Made by a program: the position numbers and the translations under genes. A stretch of 64,000 nt of DNA from Armatimonadetes bacterium DC (GTDB lineage Bacteria > Armatimonadota > Fimbriimonadia > Fimbriimonadales > GBS-DC). This document shows positions 1,648-64,000 of this stretch, in pieces. Within the stretch, counting starts at the first letter, position 1; every line of letters starts with the position of its first letter. Where the stretch lies: contig LDYB01000020.1 of the NCBI GenBank assembly GCA_001442985.1, positions 62,001 through 126,000 on the forward strand, in the 5' to 3' direction. The notes beneath the pieces are model-generated. The model made no database searches. It had not been told where the DNA came from and saw only the letters and a program-made list of their open reading frames with translations.

Positions 1648-2741
1648 TCGGGGAGTAGCAAGTTGAGATACTGCTGCGCCACCTGATCTAACTCAAACTG
1701 CTGAAGCCACTCGGCGGGAACAGGTTCGGGTGGCTCGCGTAGCGCCCGCACAATCGCGCGCGCCATCGCCTCTGCATCGCCTACAGGCACAAGCGCGCCG
1801 TACCGACCGCCATCCAGAATCTCAGACGGACCACTGGGGCAATCCGTACTCACTACGGGACACCCACATGCCAGCGCTTGAATCAATACATTCGGCAATC
1901 CCTCATACCACGAGGAGAGCACAAATACACTCGCACGCTTCATGTACCGAAATGGGTTCAGATCAAACCCTGGCAGTTCCACATCCGCGGCAACCCCTAA
2001 ATCCGATGCGAGTTGTAGCAATCGCGGGCGTTCCTCGCCCTCGCCAAGAATCACAAGACGGGCGGGCATCTGCTCGCGCACACGCGCAAAGGCGTGTAAG
2101 AGGATATCGAATCCCTTAAGGGGAACAAGGCGCCCTGCGCCCAGAACAACAGGTGGGGCGTCTGAGCGGAACCATGGGTGATCTAGGGGCGCGTTGGCTT
2201 TCACAAACAAGTCAGGCGTAATTGCTGGGTTTCTTATCACATGAAGCTTATGCGAGGGTATGGAAGCCATTTGCAGGAGTGAGTGGGCAACGCCGTACGA
2301 AGGCGCGACAATAGCGTCGGCGCACGGGTAGAGCAGACGATAGCCAAGCTGGACGGCGATTTGTACCCTCCGCTGCATTTTCCTGTGGGCAAGGGCAACT
2401 GTGGGCGTGGTGGCTTCGCGTATCACTACTCGGGTTGGCGAGCGAGTTATCCATCGCGCAAGAATAGGCGGAAAATTTCTCGGGCTGGACAGAAGCGCAT
2501 CAAACCGCTCATTACGCATAATTCTGGCTAAACTTGGCGTAACCTGAATGCGCCGACGAGATTTCAGGAAATGAACGAGTATTGCAGGATCCACTTCACT
2601 CAGGTAAGCGACTTTCTCTGAAACAACAATCATTTGTACATTATACTGGAGGCGGACAAAGTGGTTGGCAAGGGTTACCATTACCCGTTCTGCGCCTCCA
2701 CCGCTAAGACTATGGAGAAAAAACGCGAGACGTGGTCGCAT
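1644..2741 (-). CDS. Glycosyltransferase family 4
   Basis: A 365-aa retaining GT-B glycosyltransferase. The N-terminus has the GT4 glycine-rich loop (LSGGGAERVMVTLANHF). The C-terminal half has the nucleotide-sugar site: LGAGRLVPLKGFDILLHAF, then SSWYEGLPNVLIQALACGCPVVSTD with the conserved acidic EX7E-type region. It probably adds a sugar to a lipid-linked repeat unit. The start is the ATG at 2741, where homology to the neighbouring paralogue begins; a -10-like TATATT (2748-2753) lies only 6 nt upstream, suggesting a leaderless mRNA. It is closely similar to the adjacent GT4 gene at 2831-3934, so the pair probably arose by tandem duplication. The donor and acceptor sugars cannot be told from sequence. 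Confidence 0.9.
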   Translation of the reverse strand: MRPRLAFFLHSLSGGGAERVMVTLANHFVRLQYNVQMIVVSEKVAYLSEVDPAILVHFLKSRRRIQVTPSLARIMRNERFDALLSSPRNFPPILARWITRSPTRVVIREATTPTVALAHRKMQRRVQIAVQLGYRLLYPCADAIVAPSYGVAHSLLQMASIPSHKLHVIRNPAITPDLFVKANAPLDHPWFRSDAPPVVLGAGRLVPLKGFDILLHAFARVREQMPARLVILGEGEERPRLLQLASDLGVAADVELPGFDLNPFRYMKRASVFVLSSWYEGLPNVLIQALACGCPVVSTDCPSGPSEILDGGRYGALVPVGDAEAMARAIVRALREPPEPVPAEWLQQFELDQVAQQYLNLLLPD

Positions 2742-2830
2742 AACACTAATATACCACGAAACTTGCCCCAAACCGAGGCAATAGGCGGCATGTTCGGTAC
2801 ATGCACATATCTTGTAGGATGCAGCATTCC

Positions 2831-3934
2831 TCAAACCGCCTCGAGTAACACTTGTCGATATTGGCGAAACACATTGGTTTCCCGGAACTGGTCAAGCCAT
2901 GAGTCAGGAACCTGAGGCGGCGCATCGGCGAGCGCGTCCAGGATGGCACTGCTCATGGCTTCTACATCGTCAACGGGCACAAGCCGCCCGTAACGCCCCT
3001 CATCGAGGACCTCGCGCGGTCCGCTGGGACAATCGGTGCTGACAATTCGACACCCGCAGGCGAGTGCCTGAATCAGAGCATTTGGCATTCCCTCGTAGCG
3101 CGAGGAGAGCACAAACACCCCCGCACGCGCCATATATCGGAACGGGTTCTGATCGAACCCTGGCATTGCAACGATCTCCTCTAAACCTAACGTGCGCACC
3201 AGCGACTCCAGCTCCCCCCGTGCAATTCCTTCACCGAGTATCAAGAGGCGCACGGGCGTGCGCTGCACAACCCGTGCAACGGCTCGAATGAGTATATCGA
3301 ACCCCTTCTGGGCATACAGTCGCCCGACGCCCAAAATCACAGGAGGCGCGCCGTCCGCAAACCAAGGATGCTCTACAGGCTCTTTACGCAGCGCATCGAA
3401 TCGACTTGTGATTGCAGGGTTGTAAATGACATGGACGCGCGTTTCCGAGATGCCTGTAAGCTGCACCAGCACATCCCGTACCCCCCGAGAGGGTGTAATC
3501 ACGGCATCGGCGTGGGGATAAGCGTGCTGAACGAATAGCTGGATACGCAGTTGATCTTTCAACCTGCGACGAGTCTTGATCACTTCTGTGGGGGTGTTCG
3601 TTTCCCGCAAGACGACGCGCACGGGTACGCGCGCCAAGCGCTTCGCTTGCACCGCCCAGAAGTTGATGCCGCTCAAGGTACTCAAGAGCGTTACGGGGCG
3701 CTCGACGCGGAGCAGGCGCGCCAGTCGCAGCCCCCCCACTGCGTAGCGCCTCGTATCCAAGTTAATCAGGCGCACCCGCGAATCCAGCTCCGCTGCATAG
3801 GTTAGAGGGGGCGACATGACCGCCATAAGAACCTCGGCACCCTGCTGCGCAAAGTTGTTGGCAAGGGTCACCAGCACGCGCTCTGCGCCGCCCCCTGCCA
3901 GACTCCGCTGATAAAACAGGATTTTGGGCTGCAC
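2831..3934 (-). CDS. Glycosyltransferase family 4 (tandem paralogue)
   Basis: A 367-aa GT4 enzyme built like its neighbour: SLAGGGAERVLVTLANNF near the N-terminus, LGVGRLYAQKGFDILIRAV in the middle, and SSRYEGMPNALIQALACGCRIVSTDCPSGPREVL in the donor-binding site. The start is placed at a GTG at 3934 because the conserved domain begins immediately after it (VQPKILFYQRSL) and a perfect TATAAT lies 7 nt upstream at 3942-3947. Upstream in-frame residues look non-conserved. The promoter and the divergent flippase promoter share the 135-nt gap between the two genes. Transcripts would run on into the second GT4 gene, 89 nt downstream. Confidence 0.9.
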   Translation of the reverse strand: MQPKILFYQRSLAGGGAERVLVTLANNFAQQGAEVLMAVMSPPLTYAAELDSRVRLINLDTRRYAVGGLRLARLLRVERPVTLLSTLSGINFWAVQAKRLARVPVRVVLRETNTPTEVIKTRRRLKDQLRIQLFVQHAYPHADAVITPSRGVRDVLVQLTGISETRVHVIYNPAITSRFDALRKEPVEHPWFADGAPPVILGVGRLYAQKGFDILIRAVARVVQRTPVRLLILGEGIARGELESLVRTLGLEEIVAMPGFDQNPFRYMARAGVFVLSSRYEGMPNALIQALACGCRIVSTDCPSGPREVLDEGRYGRLVPVDDVEAMSSAILDALADAPPQVPDSWLDQFRETNVFRQYRQVLLEAV

Positions 3935-3941
3935 ATGGGGA

Positions 3942-3947
3942 ATTATA
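3942..3947 (-). promoter_or_regulatory. -10 box of the GT4 gene (leaderless architecture)
   Basis: A perfect TATAAT on the minus strand ends 7 nt before the GTG start at 3934. A start site 6-7 nt downstream of the -10 would place the first transcribed base at or next to the start codon. Confidence 0.55.
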
Positions 3948-4069
3948 CTCCCTCGAGAACGCCCCTCAAGAAACAATCTCGTCCCCATGCTTTCCCCTGT
4001 ACGATCTTCGCTGGCGCTGGGACCCAGATGTCCAGTTCTTCTCTAATATGTGCCATAATTTATCCCGAC

Positions 4070-5563
4070 ATGGCTCGCGAATCTGGAACCGTATCCCTTC
4101 GACAGCGTGTGATCGAAGGAGGTACTTACCTGGCAACCCGACGGGTTGTCTCTATGATTTTCAGCTTTTTGGGCGCTCTTTTCATCACACGAATTGTGGG
4201 CGCTGGCAATTATGGACTCTTCAGCGCTGCCTCCGGGATTTTTAGCTTCTTTTTGTCGGTAGGATTGATGGGTACCAATGTCTACTTAATCCGATCTTCA
4301 AAAGACGCCCCGATGAATTTATTTCATCTGGCATTCTGGTGGTTGCTGGGTTTTGGGACCTTCCTTGCCACAGCCTTAAGTGCGACACTCGTGTTTGCAG
4401 GAAACCACTGGTTCCGCACAGAAGGGTTTGTGCCTGTAGCCTTGGCGCTTTGTGCGAACATTCCCCTTACGCTCATAAGCTATGTACCCTTAGCGCTGCT
4501 TGAGCGCCAGCTGGATTACCGCAAGACCACGACCGTAGAAGTCGTTGCCCAAACTCTTCAGTACATAGTAAGTATACCACTTGTTTGGCAAGGTTATGGC
4601 GTATGGGCTCTCGTGGCAGGATTCTGGGCGAGTCAGCTCGCCCTGCCAATAGGCTTTTTCTGGGCGGCACGATACCGTCCACGATGGTACTGGAACATGG
4701 GCGAGCTGCGTGCGATGCTTGAATATAGCTTTTCCCAAGCAGTTTCCGGATGGGTCTACAACCTGAGAAACCTGTCGACCTCTATGATTGTCCTGCCCTT
4801 TGCAGGGCAGGAAGCGGTAGGCTATATCGCGTTAGCGCAGAAGTTTTTGAACTTCGTCAGCTTTCTTAAAGGACCTGCAGGGCGTCTTTCTATCCCTGCC
4901 TTTGCACGGCTACAGCAAGACGCCGCGCGTTTGACACGCGCCGTTAGTGAAGCCATGCAACTCCAGACACTGGCACTCTTGCCGTTTCTTGCCGGATTTG
5001 CCGCGATTGCCCCCTTTGTGCTTCCCCACCTCCTCGGAGCCAAATGGGATGTTCCAACGCTCTTGATGGTTTTCTCCATTAGCGGGATACGAATCCTTCT
5101 CTCTGCACTATTTGCCATTCAGGGTTCCGCTTTGTTTGTCATCAAAAAGAATTGGCTGATGCTCAAAGCGAATATTGCTTACATCGTTGTCTTCTTTCCA
5201 TTGACATATGTCGGCATGCTTGTTGCTCCTCCAGAATATCGGTTGTTCGTGTTCAACATTGCAGACCTTGTGGCACATTTTCCGACATACTGGTATAAGC
5301 ATTATGGGGTAAGCCGTTATCTGGGGCGAGTGGACTATCGTATCACTTCCTTATGGACGCTGGGAGGGATTGCCGCTCTGCTGGCGCCGTGGCTGGGTTG
5401 GTGGCTGTACGGCATCACACTCGTGCTGATAGGGCATCCTGCGAGTGTCCGAGAGATTCGGGAAGTGATTCGCTCAATCCTCGCCCAGCGAGCGCGCCGA
5501 AGCTTGCTCTCCCAGAAGTCGTCGGCGGATAGCGAGCGGCAACCGCTGAAAGAAGAGTTTTAG
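4070..5563 (+). CDS. Wzx-like polysaccharide flippase (MOP superfamily)
   Basis: A 497-aa integral membrane protein with about 12-14 hydrophobic segments. The N-terminus (VIEGGTYLATRRVVSMIFSFLGALFITRIVGAGNYGLFSAASGIFSFF) is typical of polysaccharide transport proteins that flip lipid-linked glycans across the inner membrane. The ATG at 4070 starts the conserved region; 45 in-frame codons upstream lack conservation. An extended -10 (TGC CATAAT, 4054-4059) lies 10 nt before the ATG. It fits functionally with the surrounding glycosyltransferases and the ligase/polymerase-like protein. Its last 90 nt overlap the 3' end of the convergent GT2 gene, an unusually long tail-to-tail overlap. Confidence 0.85.
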   Translation: MARESGTVSLRQRVIEGGTYLATRRVVSMIFSFLGALFITRIVGAGNYGLFSAASGIFSFFLSVGLMGTNVYLIRSSKDAPMNLFHLAFWWLLGFGTFLATALSATLVFAGNHWFRTEGFVPVALALCANIPLTLISYVPLALLERQLDYRKTTTVEVVAQTLQYIVSIPLVWQGYGVWALVAGFWASQLALPIGFFWAARYRPRWYWNMGELRAMLEYSFSQAVSGWVYNLRNLSTSMIVLPFAGQEAVGYIALAQKFLNFVSFLKGPAGRLSIPAFARLQQDAARLTRAVSEAMQLQTLALLPFLAGFAAIAPFVLPHLLGAKWDVPTLLMVFSISGIRILLSALFAIQGSALFVIKKNWLMLKANIAYIVVFFPLTYVGMLVAPPEYRLFVFNIADLVAHFPTYWYKHYGVSRYLGRVDYRITSLWTLGGIAALLAPWLGWWLYGITLVLIGHPASVREIREVIRSILAQRARRSLLSQKSSADSERQPLKEEF

Positions 5564-6418
5564 GATTTGCGGGTCCTCGCGCAAGATTCGCCATGCCTCC
5601 CCCCAGTTGCCTTTTTTGAGCGCGCTTGCGAAGTACGGATACTTGCGCTTAAGCTCGCCGCGCCGCTGGTTGTACCACAGTAATCGGCGCAGACGGGGCG
5701 TCGTCTCGGGGAGGCTACAGAGATACTCACATGACATCCGGGTGTAGAGGTGCTGTCCGCGAAATGTCGCCGTAATGCCTGCATTATGGATACGGTAATA
5801 ATACATCGGCTCGGGCAACAGGGCAAATCGCGCCCCTTTGATGAGGATTTCCGTTTGAAATGCATAATCCTGAGATTTTTTAATATGGACCTGATAGCGT
5901 ATTTGCTTTTCCTCTATAAACTGCCGCCAGATAACCGGATTAAAAGACGGATGAGCTCTGATGACTTCTTCTGCAGTATAGACGCGCGGTTTGTTCGGGT
6001 TTGGGGCATTCGGAGACCAGCGAACACCTAACACGGTTCCATCTTCCGCAAGGCGCACGGAGAGGTCCGCGACCATCTGCGCGTCCCACTCGCGAGCAAA
6101 ACGCACAAGTTTCTCCAGCCGTTCAGGCGCATACCAGTCGTCAGCATCCAACACAGCAATCCACTCACCCTGAGCGGTATCCAGCGCACGGTTGCGCGTG
6201 TAGCCTGCGCCCATGTTCTGTTCATTCTGGAGGAGTTTGATCCGGGGGTCATCCAGATAGCGTTTTACCACCTCCACAGTTTCGTCGGGCGAGGCGTCGT
6301 CGACAATAATCATTTCCCAGTCCTTGAGGGTTTGCGCCTGCACCGACTCAATCGCCTGCCCGATATAGCGGGCTGCCTTGTAGGCAGGTGTAATCACAGA
6401 GACGACGGGCGTTGCCAT
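5474..6418 (-). CDS. Glycosyltransferase family 2
   Basis: A 314-aa inverting GT-A glycosyltransferase. It shows the GT2 start VVSVITPAYKAARYIGQAIESVQAQT, the nucleotide-binding VDDASPDETVEVV, and the metal-binding AVLDADDWYAPERLEKLV, then a C-terminal basic helical tail. The ATG at 6418 is chosen because the family begins there; AGAGGA precedes it, and a TATAAT (6428-6433) sits 9 nt upstream, giving a leader of only about 2-3 nt. Gene context indicates surface-glycan assembly; the transferred sugar is unknown. Confidence 0.9.
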   Translation of the reverse strand: MATPVVSVITPAYKAARYIGQAIESVQAQTLKDWEMIIVDDASPDETVEVVKRYLDDPRIKLLQNEQNMGAGYTRNRALDTAQGEWIAVLDADDWYAPERLEKLVRFAREWDAQMVADLSVRLAEDGTVLGVRWSPNAPNPNKPRVYTAEEVIRAHPSFNPVIWRQFIEEKQIRYQVHIKKSQDYAFQTEILIKGARFALLPEPMYYYRIHNAGITATFRGQHLYTRMSCEYLCSLPETTPRLRRLLWYNQRRGELKRKYPYFASALKKGNWGEAWRILREDPQILKLFFQRLPLAIRRRLLGEQASARSLGED

Positions 6419-6427
6419 TCCTCTAAA

Positions 6428-6433
6428 ATTATA
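6428..6433 (-). promoter_or_regulatory. -10 box of the GT2 gene
   Basis: A perfect TATAAT preceded by TGTGG on the minus strand, 9 nt before the ATG at 6418. The same TGTGG-TATAAT arrangement precedes ssrA at 41463. Confidence 0.55.
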
Positions 6434-6453
6434 CCACACTTACAGGGTATTTT

Positions 6454-6492
6454 GGAGGAGAGGCACTGGCGGCGCCTGAAGTGCTTTCCTCC
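6454..6492 (+). repeat. Inverted repeat in the leader of the S55-peptidase gene
   Basis: The arms 6454-6467 (GGAGGAGAGGCACT) and 6480-6492 (AGTGCTTTCCTCC) pair over 13 positions with one G-U pair and one bulged base, around a 12-nt loop that is itself GC-rich and palindromic. It lies 88 nt before the start of the 1366-aa gene and could be a leader structure or an operator shared with the divergent GT2 gene. No U-tract follows it. Confidence 0.5.
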
Positions 6493-6579
6493 CCCTGAGC
6501 TGGTAGCCCCTCCGTCCGTGGAAAAGGACTCGCAGGACTCTTCACCGCTCCCGCGAATTGCTCTCTGCGGAGGCAACTT

Positions 6580-9500
6580 ATGATGCGAACCGTGCTGGTA
6601 TTTCTCACAGGACTGCTCTGGCTTTCTGTCTGGGCGCAGGAGGCTCCTGATGTACGCCCGATGCTGCAGGATGTGTTCCCCGTTGCGAAAGTGAAGCCCG
6701 GTATGAAAGGCTACGGGCTGACGGTATTCAAAGGCACGAAAATCGAGCGTTTTGAGGTGGAAGTGATCGGGGTGCTGGAGCAGGCGGTCGCTGGCAAGCC
6801 CCTGATTATGATCCGCGCCAGGGGCGGTCCCATCACCGAGCGCAACGCGATGATTATTGGGGGCATGAGTGGTAGCCCCGTGTTTCTGGAGGGCAAGGTT
6901 CTGGGGGCGATTGGCTATGGGTTCTTCTTTTCGCGCGAGCCAATCGGGCTGGTCACGCCGCTGGAGGCGATGCTGACCGTTTTTGATCCGCGCGTAGAGG
7001 CATGGCATCCCGCTGAGCCGCGCACGGTGATGAAACCCATCCAGATTGGGGGGCGGCGCTACGCGGGGGTTTATATTGGCTTGGAGCGCCCGCCGTCGCC
7101 CAATCTGGCGTGGGCGCGCCCGCTGATGACCCCCGTGATGGTGCGCGGTGTCTCGCCCCGCCTGATGAAACCGCTCAAGGAGCGCCTCGAAAAGTTCGGC
7201 TTGACGCCGATTATGGCGCCTGCAGGCACAACGCAGCGCCCCATTCCGGTGCGTTTTGAGCCGGGCGCGGCGCTGGGCGGCGCGCTCGCCACAGGCGATA
7301 TTGACCTCACCGCTATCGGCACGCTCACCTACCGCCGTGGCAACTATGTGCTGGGGTTCGGGCATCCGTTTCTGGGAGCGGGCGAGGTGGAGATGCCCAT
7401 GACCGCCGCCGAGATTGTGGATGTCATCCCCACCTACGACATCTCTTCCAAAATCGGCAACCGGGCGCAGGTGCTGGGCACTATCTATCGGGACGAGGCG
7501 TTCGCAATTGCGGGCAGAATCGGGCGTACCCCGAAAATGCTGCCCATCCGCGTGCAGGTGAGCCATCTCGGCAAGGGCGTCACGCGCACTTTTCGGTGCG
7601 AAGTGATACGCCATCCACTCTTCGCGAGCGGTCTCGCGGCAACGGCTGTGGATGAGTTCATCGGGCGCATCCACTATGGAATCGGCGAGGCATCGGCGAC
7701 TGTGCGGTGGCGCTTGCAAACCGACCGTTTCGGCACGATTCAATATCAGAACCGCGTGGCGTCCAACTTTTTGCTCTCCAGCGAAGTGGTGGGCGACCTG
7801 ATGTATGCGATGGACCTGATTCTGAATGCGCCCGATGTCAAGGCGACCATCGAGTCGCTGGAGGTGGAGGTGGCGATTGCGCCTACCTATGCCAGCGCGT
7901 TTATTGAATCGCTGACCACAGACAGGGCGAGCTATCGTCCTGGCGAGCGGGTGAATGCCCTGGTGCGTGTGCGCCCTTACGGCGCGCAGGACCCAGTGAG
8001 TTTTCCTGTAAGTTTCCGCCTGCCTGCGGACGCACCGCCAGGGCGCTATCTGCTCCGTGTGAGCGCACCCTCGCAGGGGATGGGCGGGGGCGCGCTGGGG
8101 TTGGGAGCCATTCTTGTGCAGGCGCTTGGCGGCGAGGGCGCTGGCGGTGGGCGGCAAAGCACGGAAGAGCTGCTGCGTGAGTTCCAGCGCCGCGAGCGCA
8201 ACAACCAGCTTATCGCCACGCTCACGATGCAACAACCCACGGTTTCGGTGAACGGCATGCTGTTGAGCCAGCCACCCCCTGCGCTGCGTGCCTTACTCGC
8301 CGTGCCGCGCTCCTCCAAAATGCAACCCCAGGCGGATGAGATCAAGCAGGTGGTGGATACCGACTGGGTGCTAACAGGCATGCAAACAGTGTTTGTGAAT
8401 GTGCTTCCCTCTGAGGATCGGGACGCGGCGCGCCGCGCGTTCTCCTTTGGCACGGCGGAGGTTCTCACTGCCGACGAGGGCGAAAGCGATATTCAGGAAA
8501 CTTTCCATGAGCGCGAGGAGATGGGGTCTTCCTTCGCCGACGAGCGTACCGACGGGGAGCCCATGACCTCAGAAGACGAGTCCGCAAAGCCAGAGGCGGA
8601 CAAACCCGTCAGCCGCAAGGTAAAGTTCTGGACGCCCGATTATGCTCTGTTAAGGCGGGGCGAGTTTGATGGAGTAGCGCTCAGCCCCGATGGCGTGCTG
8701 TCGCTGGCGCCCACGCTGAAGCCCCTTCGCACGCTCCCCGTGGAATACCTCTGGTGCGCCGTCTCGGATGCGAACGGCGTTCTCTATGTAGGCGAAGGGG
8801 TTTCAGGCGGTTTGTGGCGGATTGAGGGTGAACAGTCCCAGCGTATTCCTCTCCCCGCAACGCTGGTAACGGCGCTTGCGGTAGACCCCGATGGCACGCT
8901 CTACGCAGGCGCCTCGCCTGAGGGGACCCTGTTCCGCATGCAGAACGGGCAGGTCGCGCCGATTGGCAGCACGGGCGCACGCTACATCAATGCGCTTCAC
9001 TGGCACGAGGGCAAACTCTATATCGCCACAGGAGCGCCCGCACGCATTATGGTGTGGGAGTCGGGCGTGTTGCGCACCTTATTCACCAGCGAGGAGGCGC
9101 ATTTCTCGGCGCTCGCCGTCGGCGCGGACGGCACGGTTTATGCCGGCACTTCCGAGCGCGGGTTAATTTATCGGATTGCGCCTTCGGGGGTTGCGGAGCC
9201 AGTCGCCGACCTGAGTGAGCCGAGCGTTTCTGCTCTGTTCTGGCATGAGTCGGGCGCGTTGTTCGTAGGCACGATGCCATCGGGCAATCTGTATCGGATT
9301 GGTGCGGACGGCGTGGTGCAGGCGCTCACCGATCAGCCGCGCTGGAGTACGCGCCTGTGGCTGGCGCAGGGTGATACCCTGCTTGCCCTTGCCAGCGAGG
9401 GCGTGTTGCGTGTGAACCCGAACCTGCCGAAGCCGCAGGCGGAGATTCTCTCGCGCCAGCGCCACGAATGGGTGGGGGCAGGCACGCTCGGCGAGCAGAG

Positions 9501-10680
9501 GGCACTCGCGAGCGCAAGCGGGCAGATTCTCACCCTCGCCACCCCCGAAGAGGGGGTTTACCTCTCGCCCGTGCTGGACGCGGAAACCATTGCGCGATGG
9601 GGCGCCATTCGCTGGAACGCGCAGGGCGCCGAAGTGCAGATTCAAACCCGTTCGGGCAACACGCGCGAACCCGACGACACATGGAGCGGCTGGAGCATGG
9701 TGTACGGCGACCCGAACGGCAGCACGCTTTTCAGCCCGCCTGCGCGATTCTTGCAGGTGCAGATTCGCCTCAAGGGCGACGCCGCCGTGCGGAACCTGAG
9801 CCTCTCGTATATGCCCGCCAACCGCCCGCCCGAAGCGCGCCTGCTGAACCTCAAGCCCTACGCCGTGTTGAGCGAGAAGCAAACCCTCCGCTGGAGCGCA
9901 AAAGACCCCGATGGCGACGCGCTCCGCTTCGAAGTGCAAATCTCATCGGACGGCGGTCAATCGTGGAAGCCCCTTAAAGAGGCTCAGGCTGAATCGAAGC
10001 CCTCGGACTCTTCCAGCGCTCCCACATTGCCTACCGACACGGAGCTTCAGCAGCAACTGCTCACGGATCTGGAGGCAAACCCTGACATTCCCGAAGAGAT
10101 CAAAGCCCAGATTCGCGAGCGGGCGCCTGAAATGATTCAGCAAATGCGCCAGGCGATGGACACACAGCCCACGGAACCTGCTCAGGAGCCGCCCACGCCT
10201 GCCCGCGAGAACCGAATGGAATGGGACACCACGCAGGTGGCGGACGGCGTTTACCTGTTGCGCCTGATGGCGACCGACCAGCCTGCGATGCCGAGCGATT
10301 ACGCCACCGTCTACACCCCTCCGATCCCCGTTGTGGTCTGCAACACACCGCCCAGCGTGCTGATTTCCGAGCATTCAGTGCAGGTGGATGCCGAGGGGCG
10401 TGCCCTGCTGATGGGGTATGCTTTCCAGCGAGCGACTCTCAAAAACGGCTCTGAGCGCGCCGCGCTTCTGACCAGCGTCGGCATCACCGCTGTGCAATAT
10501 CGCATCGGCGAGGGCGACTGGTTCAGCGCGGAGCCACTGGACGGGTTGTTTGACTCCAGCTACGAGCCGTTCCGCATCCGCACGGAGCCGCTGCCCAAAG
10601 GCGAACACACCCTGAAAATCAAGGTCTTCAACGCGGCAGGCAAAACGGTGGAGATAGAGCGGAAAGTGAAGCGGGAGTAA
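6580..10680 (+). CDS. Secreted S55 (SpoIVB-like) peptidase-domain protein fused to a beta-propeller
   Basis: A 1366-aa exported protein. Residues 1-20 form a signal peptide (hydrophobic LVFLTGLLWLSVWAQ). Residues about 28-430 resemble the SpoIVB S55 family: GMKGYGLTVFKG, then GGMSGSP at 94-100 (candidate nucleophile Ser97), then LGFGHPFLGAGEVEMPM. A low-complexity acidic linker (about 620-680) leads to a propeller made of repeats such as AVDPDGTLYAGASPEGTLFRM and AVGADGTVYAGTSERGLIYRI (about 690-1010). The C-terminus has a fibronectin/cadherin-like segment (LRWSAKDPDGDALRFEVQISSDGG). A GGAGG site precedes the ATG at 6580; a second ATG follows at once. S55 domains are best known from sporulation signalling, so this architecture points to a different envelope role. 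Activity is not proven because the other catalytic residues cannot be assigned with certainty. Confidence 0.75.
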   Translation: MMRTVLVFLTGLLWLSVWAQEAPDVRPMLQDVFPVAKVKPGMKGYGLTVFKGTKIERFEVEVIGVLEQAVAGKPLIMIRARGGPITERNAMIIGGMSGSPVFLEGKVLGAIGYGFFFSREPIGLVTPLEAMLTVFDPRVEAWHPAEPRTVMKPIQIGGRRYAGVYIGLERPPSPNLAWARPLMTPVMVRGVSPRLMKPLKERLEKFGLTPIMAPAGTTQRPIPVRFEPGAALGGALATGDIDLTAIGTLTYRRGNYVLGFGHPFLGAGEVEMPMTAAEIVDVIPTYDISSKIGNRAQVLGTIYRDEAFAIAGRIGRTPKMLPIRVQVSHLGKGVTRTFRCEVIRHPLFASGLAATAVDEFIGRIHYGIGEASATVRWRLQTDRFGTIQYQNRVASNFLLSSEVVGDLMYAMDLILNAPDVKATIESLEVEVAIAPTYASAFIESLTTDRASYRPGERVNALVRVRPYGAQDPVSFPVSFRLPADAPPGRYLLRVSAPSQGMGGGALGLGAILVQALGGEGAGGGRQSTEELLREFQRRERNNQLIATLTMQQPTVSVNGMLLSQPPPALRALLAVPRSSKMQPQADEIKQVVDTDWVLTGMQTVFVNVLPSEDRDAARRAFSFGTAEVLTADEGESDIQETFHEREEMGSSFADERTDGEPMTSEDESAKPEADKPVSRKVKFWTPDYALLRRGEFDGVALSPDGVLSLAPTLKPLRTLPVEYLWCAVSDANGVLYVGEGVSGGLWRIEGEQSQRIPLPATLVTALAVDPDGTLYAGASPEGTLFRMQNGQVAPIGSTGARYINALHWHEGKLYIATGAPARIMVWESGVLRTLFTSEEAHFSALAVGADGTVYAGTSERGLIYRIAPSGVAEPVADLSEPSVSALFWHESGALFVGTMPSGNLYRIGADGVVQALTDQPRWSTRLWLAQGDTLLALASEGVLRVNPNLPKPQAEILSRQRHEWVGAGTLGEQRALASASGQILTLATPEEGVYLSPVLDAETIARWGAIRWNAQGAEVQIQTRSGNTREPDDTWSGWSMVYGDPNGSTLFSPPARFLQVQIRLKGDAAVRNLSLSYMPANRPPEARLLNLKPYAVLSEKQTLRWSAKDPDGDALRFEVQISSDGGQSWKPLKEAQAESKPSDSSSAPTLPTDTELQQQLLTDLEANPDIPEEIKAQIRERAPEMIQQMRQAMDTQPTEPAQEPPTPARENRMEWDTTQVADGVYLLRLMATDQPAMPSDYATVYTPPIPVVVCNTPPSVLISEHSVQVDAEGRALLMGYAFQRATLKNGSERAALLTSVGITAVQYRIGEGDWFSAEPLDGLFDSSYEPFRIRTEPLPKGEHTLKIKVFNAAGKTVEIERKVKRE

Positions 10681-10687
10681 GGGTCTT

Positions 10688-10720
10688 GCTCTCCCCCGTG
10701 AATCACTCACGGGGGAGAGC
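10688..10720. terminator. Hairpin between convergent genes
   Basis: A perfect 14-bp inverted repeat (10688-10701 with 10707-10720, 5-nt loop) lies between the ends of the S55-domain gene and rplL. It could stop transcription from both sides. No U-tract is present on either strand, so its efficiency as an intrinsic terminator is uncertain. Confidence 0.65.
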
Positions 10721-10730
10721 CAGGGGGTGT

Positions 10731-11129
10731 TTACTTAATCTCGACTTTGGCGCCGACTTCCTCAAGTTTCTTCTTGATTTCCTCGGCTTCCTCTTTGCTG
10801 ACGCCCTGCTTGACAGGTTGCGGCGCGCCTTCCACAAGGTCTTTGGCTTCCTTCAGCCCCAGCTGGGTGATTTCGCGCACGACCTTGATGACCTGCAGCT
10901 TGTTGCCGCCCGCATCTGCCAGCACGACATCGAACGAGGTCTTCTCCTCAGCAGGAGCCGCCTCGGCAGGCGCAGCGCCAGGCATCATGCCAGGCATCGC
11001 CGCGACGGCGACGGGCGCCGCTGCTGTGACGCCGTACTTATCCTGAAGCGCTTTGACCAGCTCGTTGAGCTCCATTACGGTCATCTCATCAATCGCCTGA
11101 ATAATCTCTTCTGCAGTCAGTTTTGCCAT
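10731..11129 (-). CDS. rplL: 50S ribosomal protein L7/L12
   Basis: A 132-aa protein with the complete L7/L12 plan: N-terminal dimerisation helices ([21 protein letters not shown]), an Ala/Pro/Met hinge at about residues 40-60, and the C-terminal factor-binding domain ([38 protein letters not shown]...). Several copies form the ribosomal stalk that recruits translation GTPases. A strong ribosome site (GGAGGAGAG) precedes the ATG at 11129; an in-frame ATG 15 codons upstream overlaps rplJ and has no such site. It follows rplJ by 13 nt. The usual rpoB is not downstream; the next gene is convergent and unrelated. Confidence 0.97.
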
Positions 11130-11142
11130 GGTTCTCTCCTCC

Positions 11143-11670
11143 TTAGGCTTGGGTTTCGGCTTTCTTGTCGGCAACCGCCTGAAGCGTGCGGACGAACTGT
11201 CCGATCAGCTCCGACAGCGTGCCCACCAGCCCCGTGATGGGGGACTGGAGCGCGCCCACCACCTGTGCCAGCAGCACCTCGCGTGGGGGCATTTTGGCTA
11301 AGGTCTCCACCGCGCTGGCGGGATAGACCTTACCGCTCAGGATGAGGGTTTTGACTTCCGCCTTGCGCACCTGTTTGATGAAGTCGGTCAGGGCTTTTGC
11401 GCAGGCAGCCTCGTCGCCCATCACAAAGGCGACGGCGGTCATGCCCTCCAGATGGGGTTCCAGCCCTTCGGGCAGGTCGCCGTTATAGGCGCGGCGGTAG
11501 AGCGTGTTCTTGACGACATGGAGTTCTGCGCCCGCAGAGCGCAGCTGGCGACGCAGGTCGGTAATCTCGCGCACGGTCAGCCCGCGATAGTCCACCAGAA
11601 TCTGGGCGTGGGCTTTTTGTAGCCAGCCCCGAATCTGCTCTACCTGCGCCACCTTTTTCGGGTTTGCCAT
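11143..11670 (-). CDS. rplJ: 50S ribosomal protein L10
   Basis: A 175-aa protein with the L10 N-terminal RNA-binding domain ([51 protein letters not shown]) and C-terminal helix region that binds L7/L12 dimers. The ATG at 11670 has an excellent AGGAGGTGA site 7 nt upstream. It is co-transcribed with rplL from its own promoter and leader RNA, described separately. The rest of the usual L11-L1 cluster is absent upstream, where corA lies. Confidence 0.97.
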
Positions 11671-11689
11671 TGAGCGTCACCTCCTGTTT

Positions 11690-60328: not shown

Positions 60329-63300
60329 TTAAACACGCTGCGCCTCCGACTGCCACTGGCTCTGGGGCACCTGATAGCGCACAATCTCTTGAATCTGTTC
60401 GGGCTGGAGGCGGCGAGCAGGGTTCTGAATCAGATGGAGCTGGGGTTGCTCGCTTGCGTGCGTGATGATATAGAGCCAGTATTCGTCGCCCAGGCGTTGC
60501 GCCATAATCCATTCGTTAGGCGTCAGCACAATGTCGCCCGTGTGAGCGCGCGCTTTGACCTCGATATAGCGCACCGCGCCGTCGGGCGATTCCGAGCGAA
60601 TGTCGTAGCCAAGATTCTGTGTCGAGACATCGGCGGGATTGCGCCCTTGCCGGCGTTCATACTCCATCGCTATCTGCATGCCGATTGCCTCAATCTCGGC
60701 GTCGGGTGCCATGCCTGCCTGCGGTTTGGGGAGAACCCGCGCCACGCCCAGCAGTTCGGGCGATTGCATCAAGAGGCTCTGCTCGCGCGCAATCTCCTGT
60801 TCCAGCGCCGCGAGCCGTTGCTCCGCCTCCTCTTTGCGACGCTGGGTGTTGGCAATCTCCGCTTCGGGAATGTCCTCACGCATGGAATATTCGAGCAGTT
60901 TATCGCTCAGTTCGCCGATTCGGCGATTCAACGAAGCGACGCCGTATTTGCGTTTTATCTCAGCCAGCTGGGTTCGGGTTCGGCGGAGCTCGTCACGGAG
61001 CGGCTCCAGGAGCTCCCGTATCAAAAACACCTCTACAGAAGCCGTATCGGGTTCTGGCGCCGTTGCGGGAGGGTTCTGTGCAGGCACAAGGTCCCACAGG
61101 ATTGCAGGGGGCACGAGGCGCAGTGTGCTATCCTGCGCCACATACACGGTGGTAATCCGCTGGGCGGCGGTGCGATTATTACCGTCGCGCAGCTCAATAC
61201 TGTAGAAGTAGAGCCAGCCGTCCAGTTTGCCGTCGGGGTCATAGAAGACGGCGCCGCACTGGCGGCTTTCGCGGCTCATCTCGCGCAGTTGCTCGCCGAT
61301 CGCCTCCAGCAGGGGGTGTCCGGGTGCAATAAACTCCGCGCCAGTGGCGCGCGCTTGCTCCTTTCGGAAAGCCAGTTTCTGATAGCTGCGTTGCACCTCA
61401 CCGTAGACGCGCTTGAACGCTTCCGAGCGGTGGCGTAGCTCAAACGGCACATTGGGCACGCTCCATAGCCCCTCGCTTTGACGCCGCGCTGCAATGCCCA
61501 TGCGATGGCACGCTCGTTCGAAAAACCGTTCCACATATTCGGGCACGAGTCGGTTCTCGCGGGCGCGACGCTCCTCACCTATAATCGCCTGCATGTCGAT
61601 ATGGCGCGTGGCTAACGCCTCCTGTGTGGCTTCCCGCACTTTCTCGATCAGCTCTTTGTCGGGTAGGGCGCGAATCGATTCCACAATCTCCTGCCAGTTG
61701 CGCCGATTGGTTACGGCATCGATAATCAGCTCGCGCAGGTCGCGCTCCAGCAAGTTGCCAATCACATCGAACACGCGGTCGGTGCCCATCTGTTCGCGGA
61801 TGCGTTCCAGTTTCTCCAGCAGGGTTGCCAGCACTTCCCCTTCGCGGGTGTCGTAAGCCACGAGGTTGTAAATATGCACTTCGCGTGTTTGCCCGTAGCG
61901 ATGGATGCGCCCCATCCGCTGCTCCAGACGGTTCGGGTTCCACGGGATGTCGTAGTTAACCATCAGCGAGCAAAACTGCAGGTTAATGCCTTCCCCGCCC
62001 GCCTCGGTGGAGACCATGACCTGCGTCTCGTGGCGAAACTTGTGTTCTGCCTGAATACGCGCGTCGAGGTTCATGCCGCCGTGCAGCTCGGTGACGCTAT
62101 AGCCCCAGCTGCGCAGTTTCCGCACCAGATAGTCCAGCGTGTCGCGCGATTCGGTGAAAATCAGCAGTTTCTCGTCCCGACCGCGCAGTTGCAGTTCCTC
62201 CAGCACCTCACGCAGCTCTTTGAGTTTGGTCTCGATGTCCTGTTCCTCGGCTTTTTTGGCGAGTTGCACCAGGTGGCGAAGGGTGTTCACCTCCTGCTGA
62301 AGTTCTGCCTGGGTGGTGGCGTTGGTGAGCTTTTCGAGGAGGTCGTCTTCGATCTTGAATCGCTCTTGCTCCTCTAACTCTTCCAGCTCGTCTTCGTCGT
62401 AAGGTAGCTTGCCCTGTCCCTGTTCGGTGAAGCGGACTCCGAACTGGAGATATTCTTTAAGGCGCTTGAGTCGTCTTTCGAGGGACTGGCGTGCGGCGTA
62501 GATGCTGGAAGCGAAGCGGCGCTGGAGCATGAGCAGGGCGAACGCCACATTACGGTTCTCGCCCTGAAGCGCCCGCCCATACTCGCGCTCCACATATTCG
62601 GTGAGCGCGTTGTAAAGCTCCTTTTCGGCGTCGCTCAGCGTAAAGGTGCGCGTGAACACATGGCGCGGCGGGAACAGCGGGCGCCCCGAAAAGTCTTTCA
62701 AATCCTCTTTGAGCCGACGCAGGTAAAGGGGGTTATCACGATACTCTATCGATTGCTGGAGCGACTCCACCGTTCCGAAAAAGCCCGGGCGGAGCAGGTC
62801 TAAAAACAGCCGAAAGTTTTCGGGGTCGCCCCGGTGGGGCGTGGCAGTGAGAAACAGCATCCCGTGCGTGCGCGTCGAGAGCAGCTCGCCCAGCCGATAG
62901 CGGGCGGTCTTTTCGGTTTTGGAGCCGTACTGATACGCCGCCATCTTGTGCGCCTCGTCCACAATCACCAGATCCCAGTGCGCCTCCCGCAGGGTCGCTA
63001 TCACCTCCTCCTGCTTGGCGTAGTCCATCGAGGTGATAATCTGGTTCTGCTCCAGCCACACGCTGCGCCCCCAATAGGAGTCCATCACATTCCGGTCTAC
63101 CACGAGGAAATGTTCGCCGAACTTCTCGCGCATCTCGCGCTGCCACTGATATTTCAGGTGCCCTGGCACCACCAGCAGCACCCGTTGCACCACACCCCGG
63201 TATTTCAGCTCCTTCAGCAGTAGCCCCGCCATGATGGTCTTGCCCGCCCCAGGGTCATCTGCCAGCAGGAAGCGCACATCAGGCTGGCGCAGGATGTAGT

Positions 63301-63649
63301 GATAGACCGCCTCGATCTGATGGGGCAGCGGGTCTATCTGCGACACATTCACTGCCAGCAGGGGGTCGAACAGGTAGGCGTAGTGCAGGCGGTACGCCTC
63401 GATGCCCAGAAAAAACGCTTCAGGGTCGCCCCGAAAGTTGCGCATCAGTGGCGCTTGAACCCGCCACTGGGCAAGGTCAGCCTCTGGGAAAATGCCGTCG
63501 TAGGCTTGTTTCGTGTGAACACCCTGCGCATAGATTCGCCAGAACCCGTCCTCAAGCGGCTGCACCTGTACCACGCGCACTGGCTCGCTGAACTGGCTCG
63601 ATTCGACGATGCTCCCGATGGGCACCGGCGGCTGGCTCGCGCCCTGCAT
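60329..63649 (-). CDS. SNF2-family helicase with C-terminal DUF3883 domain (DrmD-like)
   Basis: A 1106-aa superfamily 2 ATPase. An N-terminal ~100-residue region (SIVESSQFSEPVRVVQVQPLEDGFW) precedes the motor: Walker A DDPGAGKT (residues 131-138), DEAH box at 231-234, TATPH near 268, then a C-terminal RecA lobe with LIFTESRDTLDYLVRKL, STEAGGEGINLQF and QRMGRIHRYGQ. A coiled-coil follows (about 900-970), then a DUF3883-type domain (GYDIRSESPDGAVRYIEVKARAHTGDIVLT) with a nuclease-like D...ExK pattern. This layout matches helicases of DISARM-type and DUF499-linked defence loci. AAGGAG precedes the ATG at 63649 with 8-nt spacing; a GTG at 63658 overlaps the upstream stop. It is coupled to the upstream partial gene. 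Confidence 0.88.
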   Translation of the reverse strand: MQGASQPPVPIGSIVESSQFSEPVRVVQVQPLEDGFWRIYAQGVHTKQAYDGIFPEADLAQWRVQAPLMRNFRGDPEAFFLGIEAYRLHYAYLFDPLLAVNVSQIDPLPHQIEAVYHYILRQPDVRFLLADDPGAGKTIMAGLLLKELKYRGVVQRVLLVVPGHLKYQWQREMREKFGEHFLVVDRNVMDSYWGRSVWLEQNQIITSMDYAKQEEVIATLREAHWDLVIVDEAHKMAAYQYGSKTEKTARYRLGELLSTRTHGMLFLTATPHRGDPENFRLFLDLLRPGFFGTVESLQQSIEYRDNPLYLRRLKEDLKDFSGRPLFPPRHVFTRTFTLSDAEKELYNALTEYVEREYGRALQGENRNVAFALLMLQRRFASSIYAARQSLERRLKRLKEYLQFGVRFTEQGQGKLPYDEDELEELEEQERFKIEDDLLEKLTNATTQAELQQEVNTLRHLVQLAKKAEEQDIETKLKELREVLEELQLRGRDEKLLIFTESRDTLDYLVRKLRSWGYSVTELHGGMNLDARIQAEHKFRHETQVMVSTEAGGEGINLQFCSLMVNYDIPWNPNRLEQRMGRIHRYGQTREVHIYNLVAYDTREGEVLATLLEKLERIREQMGTDRVFDVIGNLLERDLRELIIDAVTNRRNWQEIVESIRALPDKELIEKVREATQEALATRHIDMQAIIGEERRARENRLVPEYVERFFERACHRMGIAARRQSEGLWSVPNVPFELRHRSEAFKRVYGEVQRSYQKLAFRKEQARATGAEFIAPGHPLLEAIGEQLREMSRESRQCGAVFYDPDGKLDGWLYFYSIELRDGNNRTAAQRITTVYVAQDSTLRLVPPAILWDLVPAQNPPATAPEPDTASVEVFLIRELLEPLRDELRRTRTQLAEIKRKYGVASLNRRIGELSDKLLEYSMREDIPEAEIANTQRRKEEAEQRLAALEQEIAREQSLLMQSPELLGVARVLPKPQAGMAPDAEIEAIGMQIAMEYERRQGRNPADVSTQNLGYDIRSESPDGAVRYIEVKARAHTGDIVLTPNEWIMAQRLGDEYWLYIITHASEQPQLHLIQNPARRLQPEQIQEIVRYQVPQSQWQSEAQRV

Positions 63650-63654
63650 ACGGT

Positions 63655-64000
63655 TCACTCCTTCTCCTGAATCTCAACATCAGCCTGAATTTGATTGAGC
63701 GTTTCCGGGATATTGATGTCCGCCAGGGTTTTGGGGATTTCGCCCTGCACCTCCAGTTCAACCGTGAAGCGGAAGTTGAGTCCATGACTCATCAGGGGGG
63801 TCAGCACGCCGCGCATCAGCTCATAGGTCTTCGCGCTGGGCACGGACACCCGTAGTTTGTAGCGCCGATAGCTGGGCTGCGCGGCAGGCTTTGAGGGCGG
63901 CGGGAGCGGTTCGACTGGATGCGGCTCGCCGATTACTACGGGCTGGGCAGACACGCGCTCCGACGCCCTCTCTTCGGGGGCTGGTTCGGTAGCGGGGGCT
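63655..64000 (-). CDS. C-terminus of a probable DUF499 ATPase (5' end outside window)
   Basis: The frame is open to the right edge; the last 114 residues are seen. A Pro/Ala/Glu-rich linker (about 45 residues) leads to a compact domain, YRRYKLRVSVPSAKTYELMRGVLTPLMSHGLNFRFTVELEVQGEIPKTLADINIPETLNQIQADVEIQ. The RGVLTPL and ETLNQI pattern matches what I recall of the C-terminal domain of DUF499 (Swt1/AAA-like) proteins, which often pair with a DUF3883 helicase and a DUF1156 methylase. The assignment is by memory and moderate. Its stop overlaps the GTG and lies 6 nt before the ATG of the helicase gene. Confidence 0.55.
   Translation of the reverse strand, partial: APATEPAPEERASERVSAQPVVIGEPHPVEPLPPPSKPAAQPSYRRYKLRVSVPSAKTYELMRGVLTPLMSHGLNFRFTVELEVQGEIPKTLADINIPETLNQIQADVEIQEKE

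What the first reader, a model, noticed from the sequence alone, without database searches (positions are those of the whole stretch)
60329..64000. Edge of a probable antiviral defence module: DUF499-like ATPase plus DrmD-like helicase
Seen: a 1106-aa SNF2/DEAH helicase with a C-terminal DUF3883-type domain (GYDIR...YIEVKAR), translationally coupled to the C-terminus of a protein that runs off the window. Known: SNF2 helicases of this type occur in DISARM (DrmD) and in DISARM-related arrays where DUF499 ATPases and DUF1156 DNA methylases are neighbours. Inference: the region beyond position 64000 holds the rest of the DUF499 gene and probably a DUF1156 methylase and accessory genes. The N-terminal ~100 residues and the DUF3883 end of the helicase may carry target sensing or cleavage.
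Basis: partly seen in the sequence, partly recalled or inferred. Interest (0 to 1): 0.75.

Follow-up and report, generated by a model that had tools for sequence, protein, structure and literature searches.

The report
Hma antiviral operon with broken methylase
The window edge cuts through a known three-gene bacterial antivirus system, Hma (helicase-nuclease, ATPase and DNA methylase); all three genes are present, but in this assembly the methylase gene is interrupted by a stop codon, so the system may be switched off or decaying.

Summary
Window 60329-63658 (-) encodes a 1109-aa SNF2 helicase with a C-terminal DUF3883/NOV_C domain, overlapping by 4 bp the 3' end of a gene that leaves the window. 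On the contig that gene is an 880-aa DUF499 ATPase, preceded by a DUF1156 DNA methylase and then topA. This is a complete Hma operon (order B-C-A), also called a Type-1 DUF499 BREX-related (BR) system. It is a known kind, best filed as Hma rather than DISARM: HmaA scores 698 bits against DrmD 514, and the DISARM marker DUF1998 is absent from the genome. The NOV_C domain folds as a PD-(D/E)XK nuclease, with D1019, E1033 and K1035 invariant in 105 homologues.

Broken HmaB with intact HmaA recurs in Armatimonadota relatives, but 80 named loci show no HmaB excess.

Two side leads are more novel. HmaB is split at one loop by different toxin-antitoxin cargos in two unrelated lineages. A head-tailed virus carries HmaB alone beside HsdM and HsdS.

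The parts
60329..63658 (-). hmaA: SNF2-family helicase-nuclease, 1109 aa, GTG start
   Evidence: PADLOC HmaA 697.7 bits
62597..63322 (-). SNF2-rel N-terminal ATPase lobe (residues 113-354; DPGAGKT, DEAH)
   Evidence: conserved in relatives
61892..62215 (-). Helicase_C lobe (residues 482-589)
60428..60694 (-). NOV_C/DUF3883 = PD-(D/E)XK nuclease domain (residues 989-1077); D1019, E1033, K1035 invariant in 105 HmaA
63655..64000 (-). 3' end of hmaC (DUF499 ATPase, 880 aa). The full gene would be window 63655-66297 (L004:5655-8297). Beyond it, on the same strand and outside the window: hmaB (DUF1156 methylase) at window-equivalent 66455-69397 with in-frame TGA at 68141-68143; topA at 69452-71728

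Best explanation
It is a chromosomal, horizontally acquired Hma (Type-1 DUF499 BREX-related) operon, gene order hmaB-hmaC-hmaA, in a bacterium of the Fimbriimonadales family of Armatimonadota. In the intact system HmaB (DUF1156 N6-adenine-type methylase) marks host sites. HmaC (DUF499 AAA+ ATPase with a variable C-terminus) assembles or licenses the complex and takes part in recognising unmarked foreign DNA. HmaA translocates with its SNF2 motor and cuts DNA with its C-terminal PD-(D/E)XK domain. In this assembly hmaB has one in-frame TGA at codon 419 between the target-recognition half and the catalytic half. The module is therefore most likely defective or switched off at the methylase step while HmaA and HmaC stay open. 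Shown: gene content, domains, nuclease fold and invariant catalytic residues, the stop codon. Inferred: biochemical roles, modification-based self-recognition, inactivity.
For: Families and PADLOC scores: HmaA 697.7, HmaC 506.6, HmaB 239 + 153 bits on its two pieces. Contig context and overlaps. AlphaFold model of the C-terminus, pLDDT 93, best PDB matches Hjc resolvases, EcoRV and PvuII also listed; D1019/E1033/K1035 invariant in 105 HmaA. HmaB invariant DPF.GGG and DPPY motifs. In-frame TGA with the rest of the gene open; TGA is also hmaB's own terminator, so TGA is not recoded. Lineage-specific position: none of the 17 topA loci recovered from 16 family relatives has Hma beside topA; nearest HmaA found is in another family of the phylum, 72%, against 68% in the same family. 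Published system: PMC8565338, PMC12839542. A virus carrying HmaB without HmaA or HmaC beside HsdM/HsdS without a visible HsdR fits HmaB as the modification arm.
Against: The stop codon rests on one assembly (MAG-like, 26 contigs); no reads could be checked. If HmaA and HmaC restrict on their own, losing HmaB should be lethal, so either they are inactive, HmaB is needed for restriction, or the stop is an error. PADLOC's paper calls HmaB m5C, whereas the DPPY motif and PMC12839542 say N6A.
Confidence: 0.8

Rival explanations
1. The in-frame TGA is a sequencing or assembly error, or a minority strain's allele, and the operon is an intact, working Hma system.
For: Only one codon is wrong in 980; everything downstream is open and conserved; a relative has R at this position, so CGA to TGA is a single change.
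Against: A substitution error in a well-covered contig is uncommon; the close relative L064 also has a single nonsense codon, at another site, with HmaA and HmaC open.
Confidence: 0.35
2. HmaB works as two chains here, re-initiating after the stop, as naturally split methylases do.
For: HmaB is found as two separate ORFs at one loop in two other lineages.
Against: The window's stop is about 115 residues upstream of that loop, inside the recognition region. The first in-frame ATG after it lacks an evident Shine-Dalgarno sequence, and the ATG overlapping the TGA is in the wrong frame (read).
Confidence: 0.08
3. It is a DISARM-related locus with a DrmD helicase.
For: HmaA matches DrmD profiles, 514 bits.
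Against: HmaA profile scores higher and spans the whole protein; no DUF1998 (DrmB) in the genome; DUF499 and DUF1156 define Hma/BR.
Confidence: 0.04

Closest known systems
Hma system (Payne et al. 2021, PMC8565338)
   Same: Helicase HmaA, methylase HmaB, ATPase HmaC; all three profiles match
   Different: Order B-C-A here, against A-B-C in most relatives examined; hmaB interrupted by TGA; the original paper calls HmaB m5C whereas the motifs are amino-methylase
Type-1 DUF499-centred BREX-related (BR) system (PMC12839542, 2026)
   Same: Tripartite DUF499 ATPase, DUF1156 N6-MTase, SNF2 helicase with C-terminal PD-(D/E)XK
   Different: No N-terminal HEPN on DUF499 (an optional feature of Type-1)
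DUF499 / SNF2-DUF3883 R-M operons (PMC3710099, 2013)
   Same: DUF499 AAA+ beside SNF2 helicase fused to DUF3883, already called a novel REase
   Different: HEPN fusion absent here
DISARM (DrmD)
   Same: Related SNF2 helicase
   Different: No DUF1998 protein; DUF499 and DUF1156 instead
BREX Type 3
   Same: Homologous ATPase, methylase and helicase by published comparison (PMC12839542); methylase often broken in BREX (PMC9122589, PMC11341690)
   Different: No PglZ or other BREX genes among the neighbours scanned

Membership tests
Hma / Type-1 BR | DUF499 AAA+ ATPase (HmaC) | tested here: met
   PF04465 169.6 bits; PADLOC HmaC 506.6 bits
Hma / Type-1 BR | DUF1156 DNA methylase (HmaB) present | tested here: met
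   PF06634 73.3 bits; HmaB profiles match both pieces
Hma / Type-1 BR | HmaB as one intact reading frame | tested here: not met
   In-frame TGA at codon 419. Affects activity, not homology
Hma / Type-1 BR | SNF2 helicase with C-terminal active PD-(D/E)XK domain | tested here: met
Hma / Type-1 BR | No DUF3780 gene (marker of Type-2 BR) | tested here: met
   Nothing else of gene length on the operon strand between topA and the prepilin gene
Hma / Type-1 BR | Antiphage activity and DNA methylation | not testable with these tools
   needs experiment
DISARM | DrmB (DUF1998/MZB, PF09369) | tested here: not met
   No match in the whole genome, while the control genomes ring in 8 of 14
DISARM | DrmD as best helicase match | tested here: not met
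   HmaA 697.7 > DrmD 514 bits
BREX | PglZ and BrxC in the locus | tested here: not met
   Ten flanking proteins scanned with PADLOC: no BREX hits; HmaC hits BrxC only at 19 bits

The most novel reading that the evidence does not exclude
HmaB has a split-permissive loop just before its catalytic DPPY motif. Toxin-antitoxin genes have inserted there at least twice independently (HEPN-MNT in an Armatimonadota MAG, DarT-macro plus others in an Aquificaceae MAG), leaving two in-frame methylase halves that work together as a two-chain enzyme and tie loss of the methylase to loss of the antitoxin. The methylase would thus be both the failure point and the addiction point of Hma systems.
Probability: 0.4. 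Interest if true: 0.6.

Novelty: new member of a known kind. Interest (0 to 1): 0.35.

Why it matters
The locus itself adds one more, possibly inactivated, Hma system in a poorly studied phylum. The wider value is a testable question about how Hma avoids killing its host: in several genomes the methylase is broken while the helicase-nuclease and ATPase stay open. A classical restriction system could not tolerate that, but a BREX-like one, in which the methylase is needed for restriction too, could. The viral stand-alone HmaB (82% identical to a Methanoliparum HmaB) and the split HmaB with toxin-antitoxin cargo offer two direct handles on the modification arm.

Tried and rejected
Frameshift in hmaB: rejected, the two pieces are in one frame separated by a single TGA. 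TGA recoding: rejected, since hmaB itself ends in TGA and the other broken copies use TAG or TAA. Programmed stop at a fixed site: rejected, the nonsense codons lie at different positions. General excess of HmaB breakage: suggested in Armatimonadota (hand tally: B 9/43, A 1/36, C 2/36; Fisher p=0.018 for B vs A, 0.009 for B vs A+C) but not seen in 80 named loci (A 5/55, B 6/73, C 6/57 incomplete), which were however selected for high-scoring HmaB; not claimed as a rule. Empty insertion site: topA and the MFS-NadD block are not adjacent in the relatives, so no empty-site comparison was possible. 109-nt hairpin-rich in-frame insert in hmaB as a genomic repeat: no second copy. First genome-contig scan with a single protein found no relative. 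HmaB whole-model PDB search gave only generic methyltransferase-core matches. DpdF hit of topA is topoisomerase homology. The experimental Hma helicase paper cited by PMC12839542 (ref 112) is not held, so it is known here only through that review.

Full report
Observation. The 1109-aa ORF at 60329-63658 (-) is real and is an SNF2 helicase ending in NOV_C/DUF3883. It overlaps the upstream frame by 4 bp. The window is G000:C20:62001-126000 and the contig continues to 292,721.

What lies beyond 64000. Going 5' on the minus strand: hmaC (DUF499, 880 aa, L004:5655-8297), a 157-bp gap, hmaB (DUF1156 methylase, L004:8455-11397), a 54-bp gap, then topA, a LacI regulator, ilvC, YbbR- and DisA-like genes. 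On the other side are a prepilin-like gene, a DUF4878-like protein, an MFS transporter, NadD and RsfS (names partly from general knowledge). None of the ten flanking proteins scanned is a PADLOC defence gene apart from a topoisomerase cross-hit. PADLOC assigns the three genes to HmaA (697.7 bits), HmaC (506.6) and HmaB (239 and 153 on two pieces). L004 coordinate + 58000 = window coordinate.

Where it lives. Contig CALGZO010000131.1 (uncultured Fimbriimonadales) is identical to a contig of G013, a genome of the same family as the window (L194 = L095), so the window is from Fimbriimonadales, Armatimonadota. HmaA is 68% identical to G013's but 72% to G180's, of another family, and no family relative examined has Hma next to topA. 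This is the patchy distribution expected of horizontal transfer.

The nuclease. D1019, E1033 and K1035 are invariant in 105 HmaA sequences, and a conserved Glu in the first helix is invariant in the 57-sequence alignment (E42 of A2). AlphaFold gives pLDDT 92.8; Foldseek's best PDB matches are archaeal Hjc resolvases, with EcoRV, PvuII, RecU and I-Ssp6803I further down. The domain is a PD-(D/E)XK nuclease with the full signature. This agrees with the literature, which already calls DUF3883 an REase (PMC3710099) and the BR Type-1 helicase a helicase-nuclease (PMC12839542).

The methylase. HmaB keeps DPFAGGG and DPPYYDN, invariant or nearly so across homologues, i.e. an amino-methylase of the N6A/N4C class. 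Codon 419 is TGA in the context ...RYGMT*WGDVFN...; relatives have R, K or T there. The downstream 561 codons are open. The AlphaFold model of the read-through protein (pLDDT 86) puts residue 419 just before a helix between the recognition region and the catalytic half, and the window-specific insert at about 163-209 is disordered. A one-base nonsense change in an otherwise pristine gene is recent, or an error.

Is breakage of hmaB recurrent? Among Armatimonadota loci: G180 has TAG at a Trp codon, G058 TAA at a Tyr codon right after DPPYYDAVP, G183 several stops, G157 a frameshift, G084 a deletion fusing the HmaB N-half to the HmaC C-end, G079 a split by inserted genes, and G024 has all three genes broken. 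HmaA is open in those where it can be read, except G024. Hand tally B 9/43 against A 1/36 and C 2/36. In 80 named loci there is no such excess. I therefore report recurrence, not a rule. The literature parallel is BREX, where pglX disruptions and phase variation are common and unique among BREX genes (PMC9122589; PMC11341690).

Mechanism. Best supported: modification by HmaB, recognition and licensing by HmaC, translocation and cleavage by HmaA. The order of events and the recognition signal are inferred from R-M/BREX logic. Two comparative facts bear on it. First, virus IMGVR_UViG_3300013885_000001 (terminase and portal present) carries an intact HmaB alone, in a row with N6_N4_Mtase, HsdM and HsdS, with no HmaA or HmaC found in its 63 kb by search (the tool warns that an empty answer is weak). 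Its HmaB is 82% identical to that of Ca. Methanoliparum, whose locus has all three genes. Viruses keep methylases to look like host DNA, so this fits HmaB being the modification arm. Second, G183 has a broken HmaB in its operon and an intact solitary HmaB elsewhere, 82.5% identical, so protection in trans is possible there. The window genome shows no full-length second copy.

Novelty. The system is known (2013, 2021, 2026 papers). The interrupted hmaB, the repeated split of hmaB at one loop with HEPN-MNT or DarT-macro cargo (tree placing the two splits apart), and the viral orphan HmaB were not found described in the papers read here; one full-text search on inserted HEPN/split methylases returned nothing, which is weak evidence of absence.

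Noticed in passing
L080 (G079:C32), HmaB-N 7844-9352, MNT 9349-9648, HEPN 9645-9998, HmaB-C 9991-11223: hmaB is split in two in-frame halves with a HEPN-MNT toxin-antitoxin pair between them; all four ORFs overlap by 4-8 bp.
   Followed up: partly
L159 (JALSHV010000028.1, Aquificaceae MAG), HmaB-N 2063-3553, cargo 3597-8250, HmaB-C 8343-9578: hmaB is split at the same loop by about 4.7 kb of cargo, including a DarT-macro fusion, an AAA ATPase and a MazE-like antitoxin. The HmaB tree places it far from L080, so the split is independent.
   Followed up: partly
L239:9232-11850 (IMGVR_UViG_3300013885_000001): Head-tailed virus with a stand-alone HmaB 82% identical to Ca. Methanoliparum HmaB, beside N6_N4_Mtase (with intein-like domain), HsdM and HsdS; no HmaA or HmaC found.
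   Followed up: partly
L070 and L069 (both G183): One genome holds an Hma operon with a broken HmaB and, elsewhere, an intact solitary HmaB 82.5% identical.
   Followed up: partly
L078:8606-10470 (G084): A deletion fuses the N-terminal part of HmaB to the C-terminal end of HmaC; HmaA is intact.
   Followed up: no
L160:9983-13411: One 1143-aa ORF matches both HmaB (model 39-846) and HmaC (295-531): a possible B-C fusion after deletion.
   Followed up: no
L004:10811-10919 (window-equivalent 68811-68919): A 109-nt in-frame, hairpin-forming insert in the window's hmaB, absent from relatives; single copy in the genome, disordered in the model.
   Followed up: yes
L239 vs L126 HmaB, residues about 420-490: The viral and host HmaB are nearly identical except in this stretch, just before the split loop; a candidate specificity-changing segment.
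   Followed up: no
L080:3099-3551 and 11180-11682: Arrays of short GGAGGGC.GCTCTCC-type repeats lie on both sides of the G079 Hma locus.
   Followed up: no
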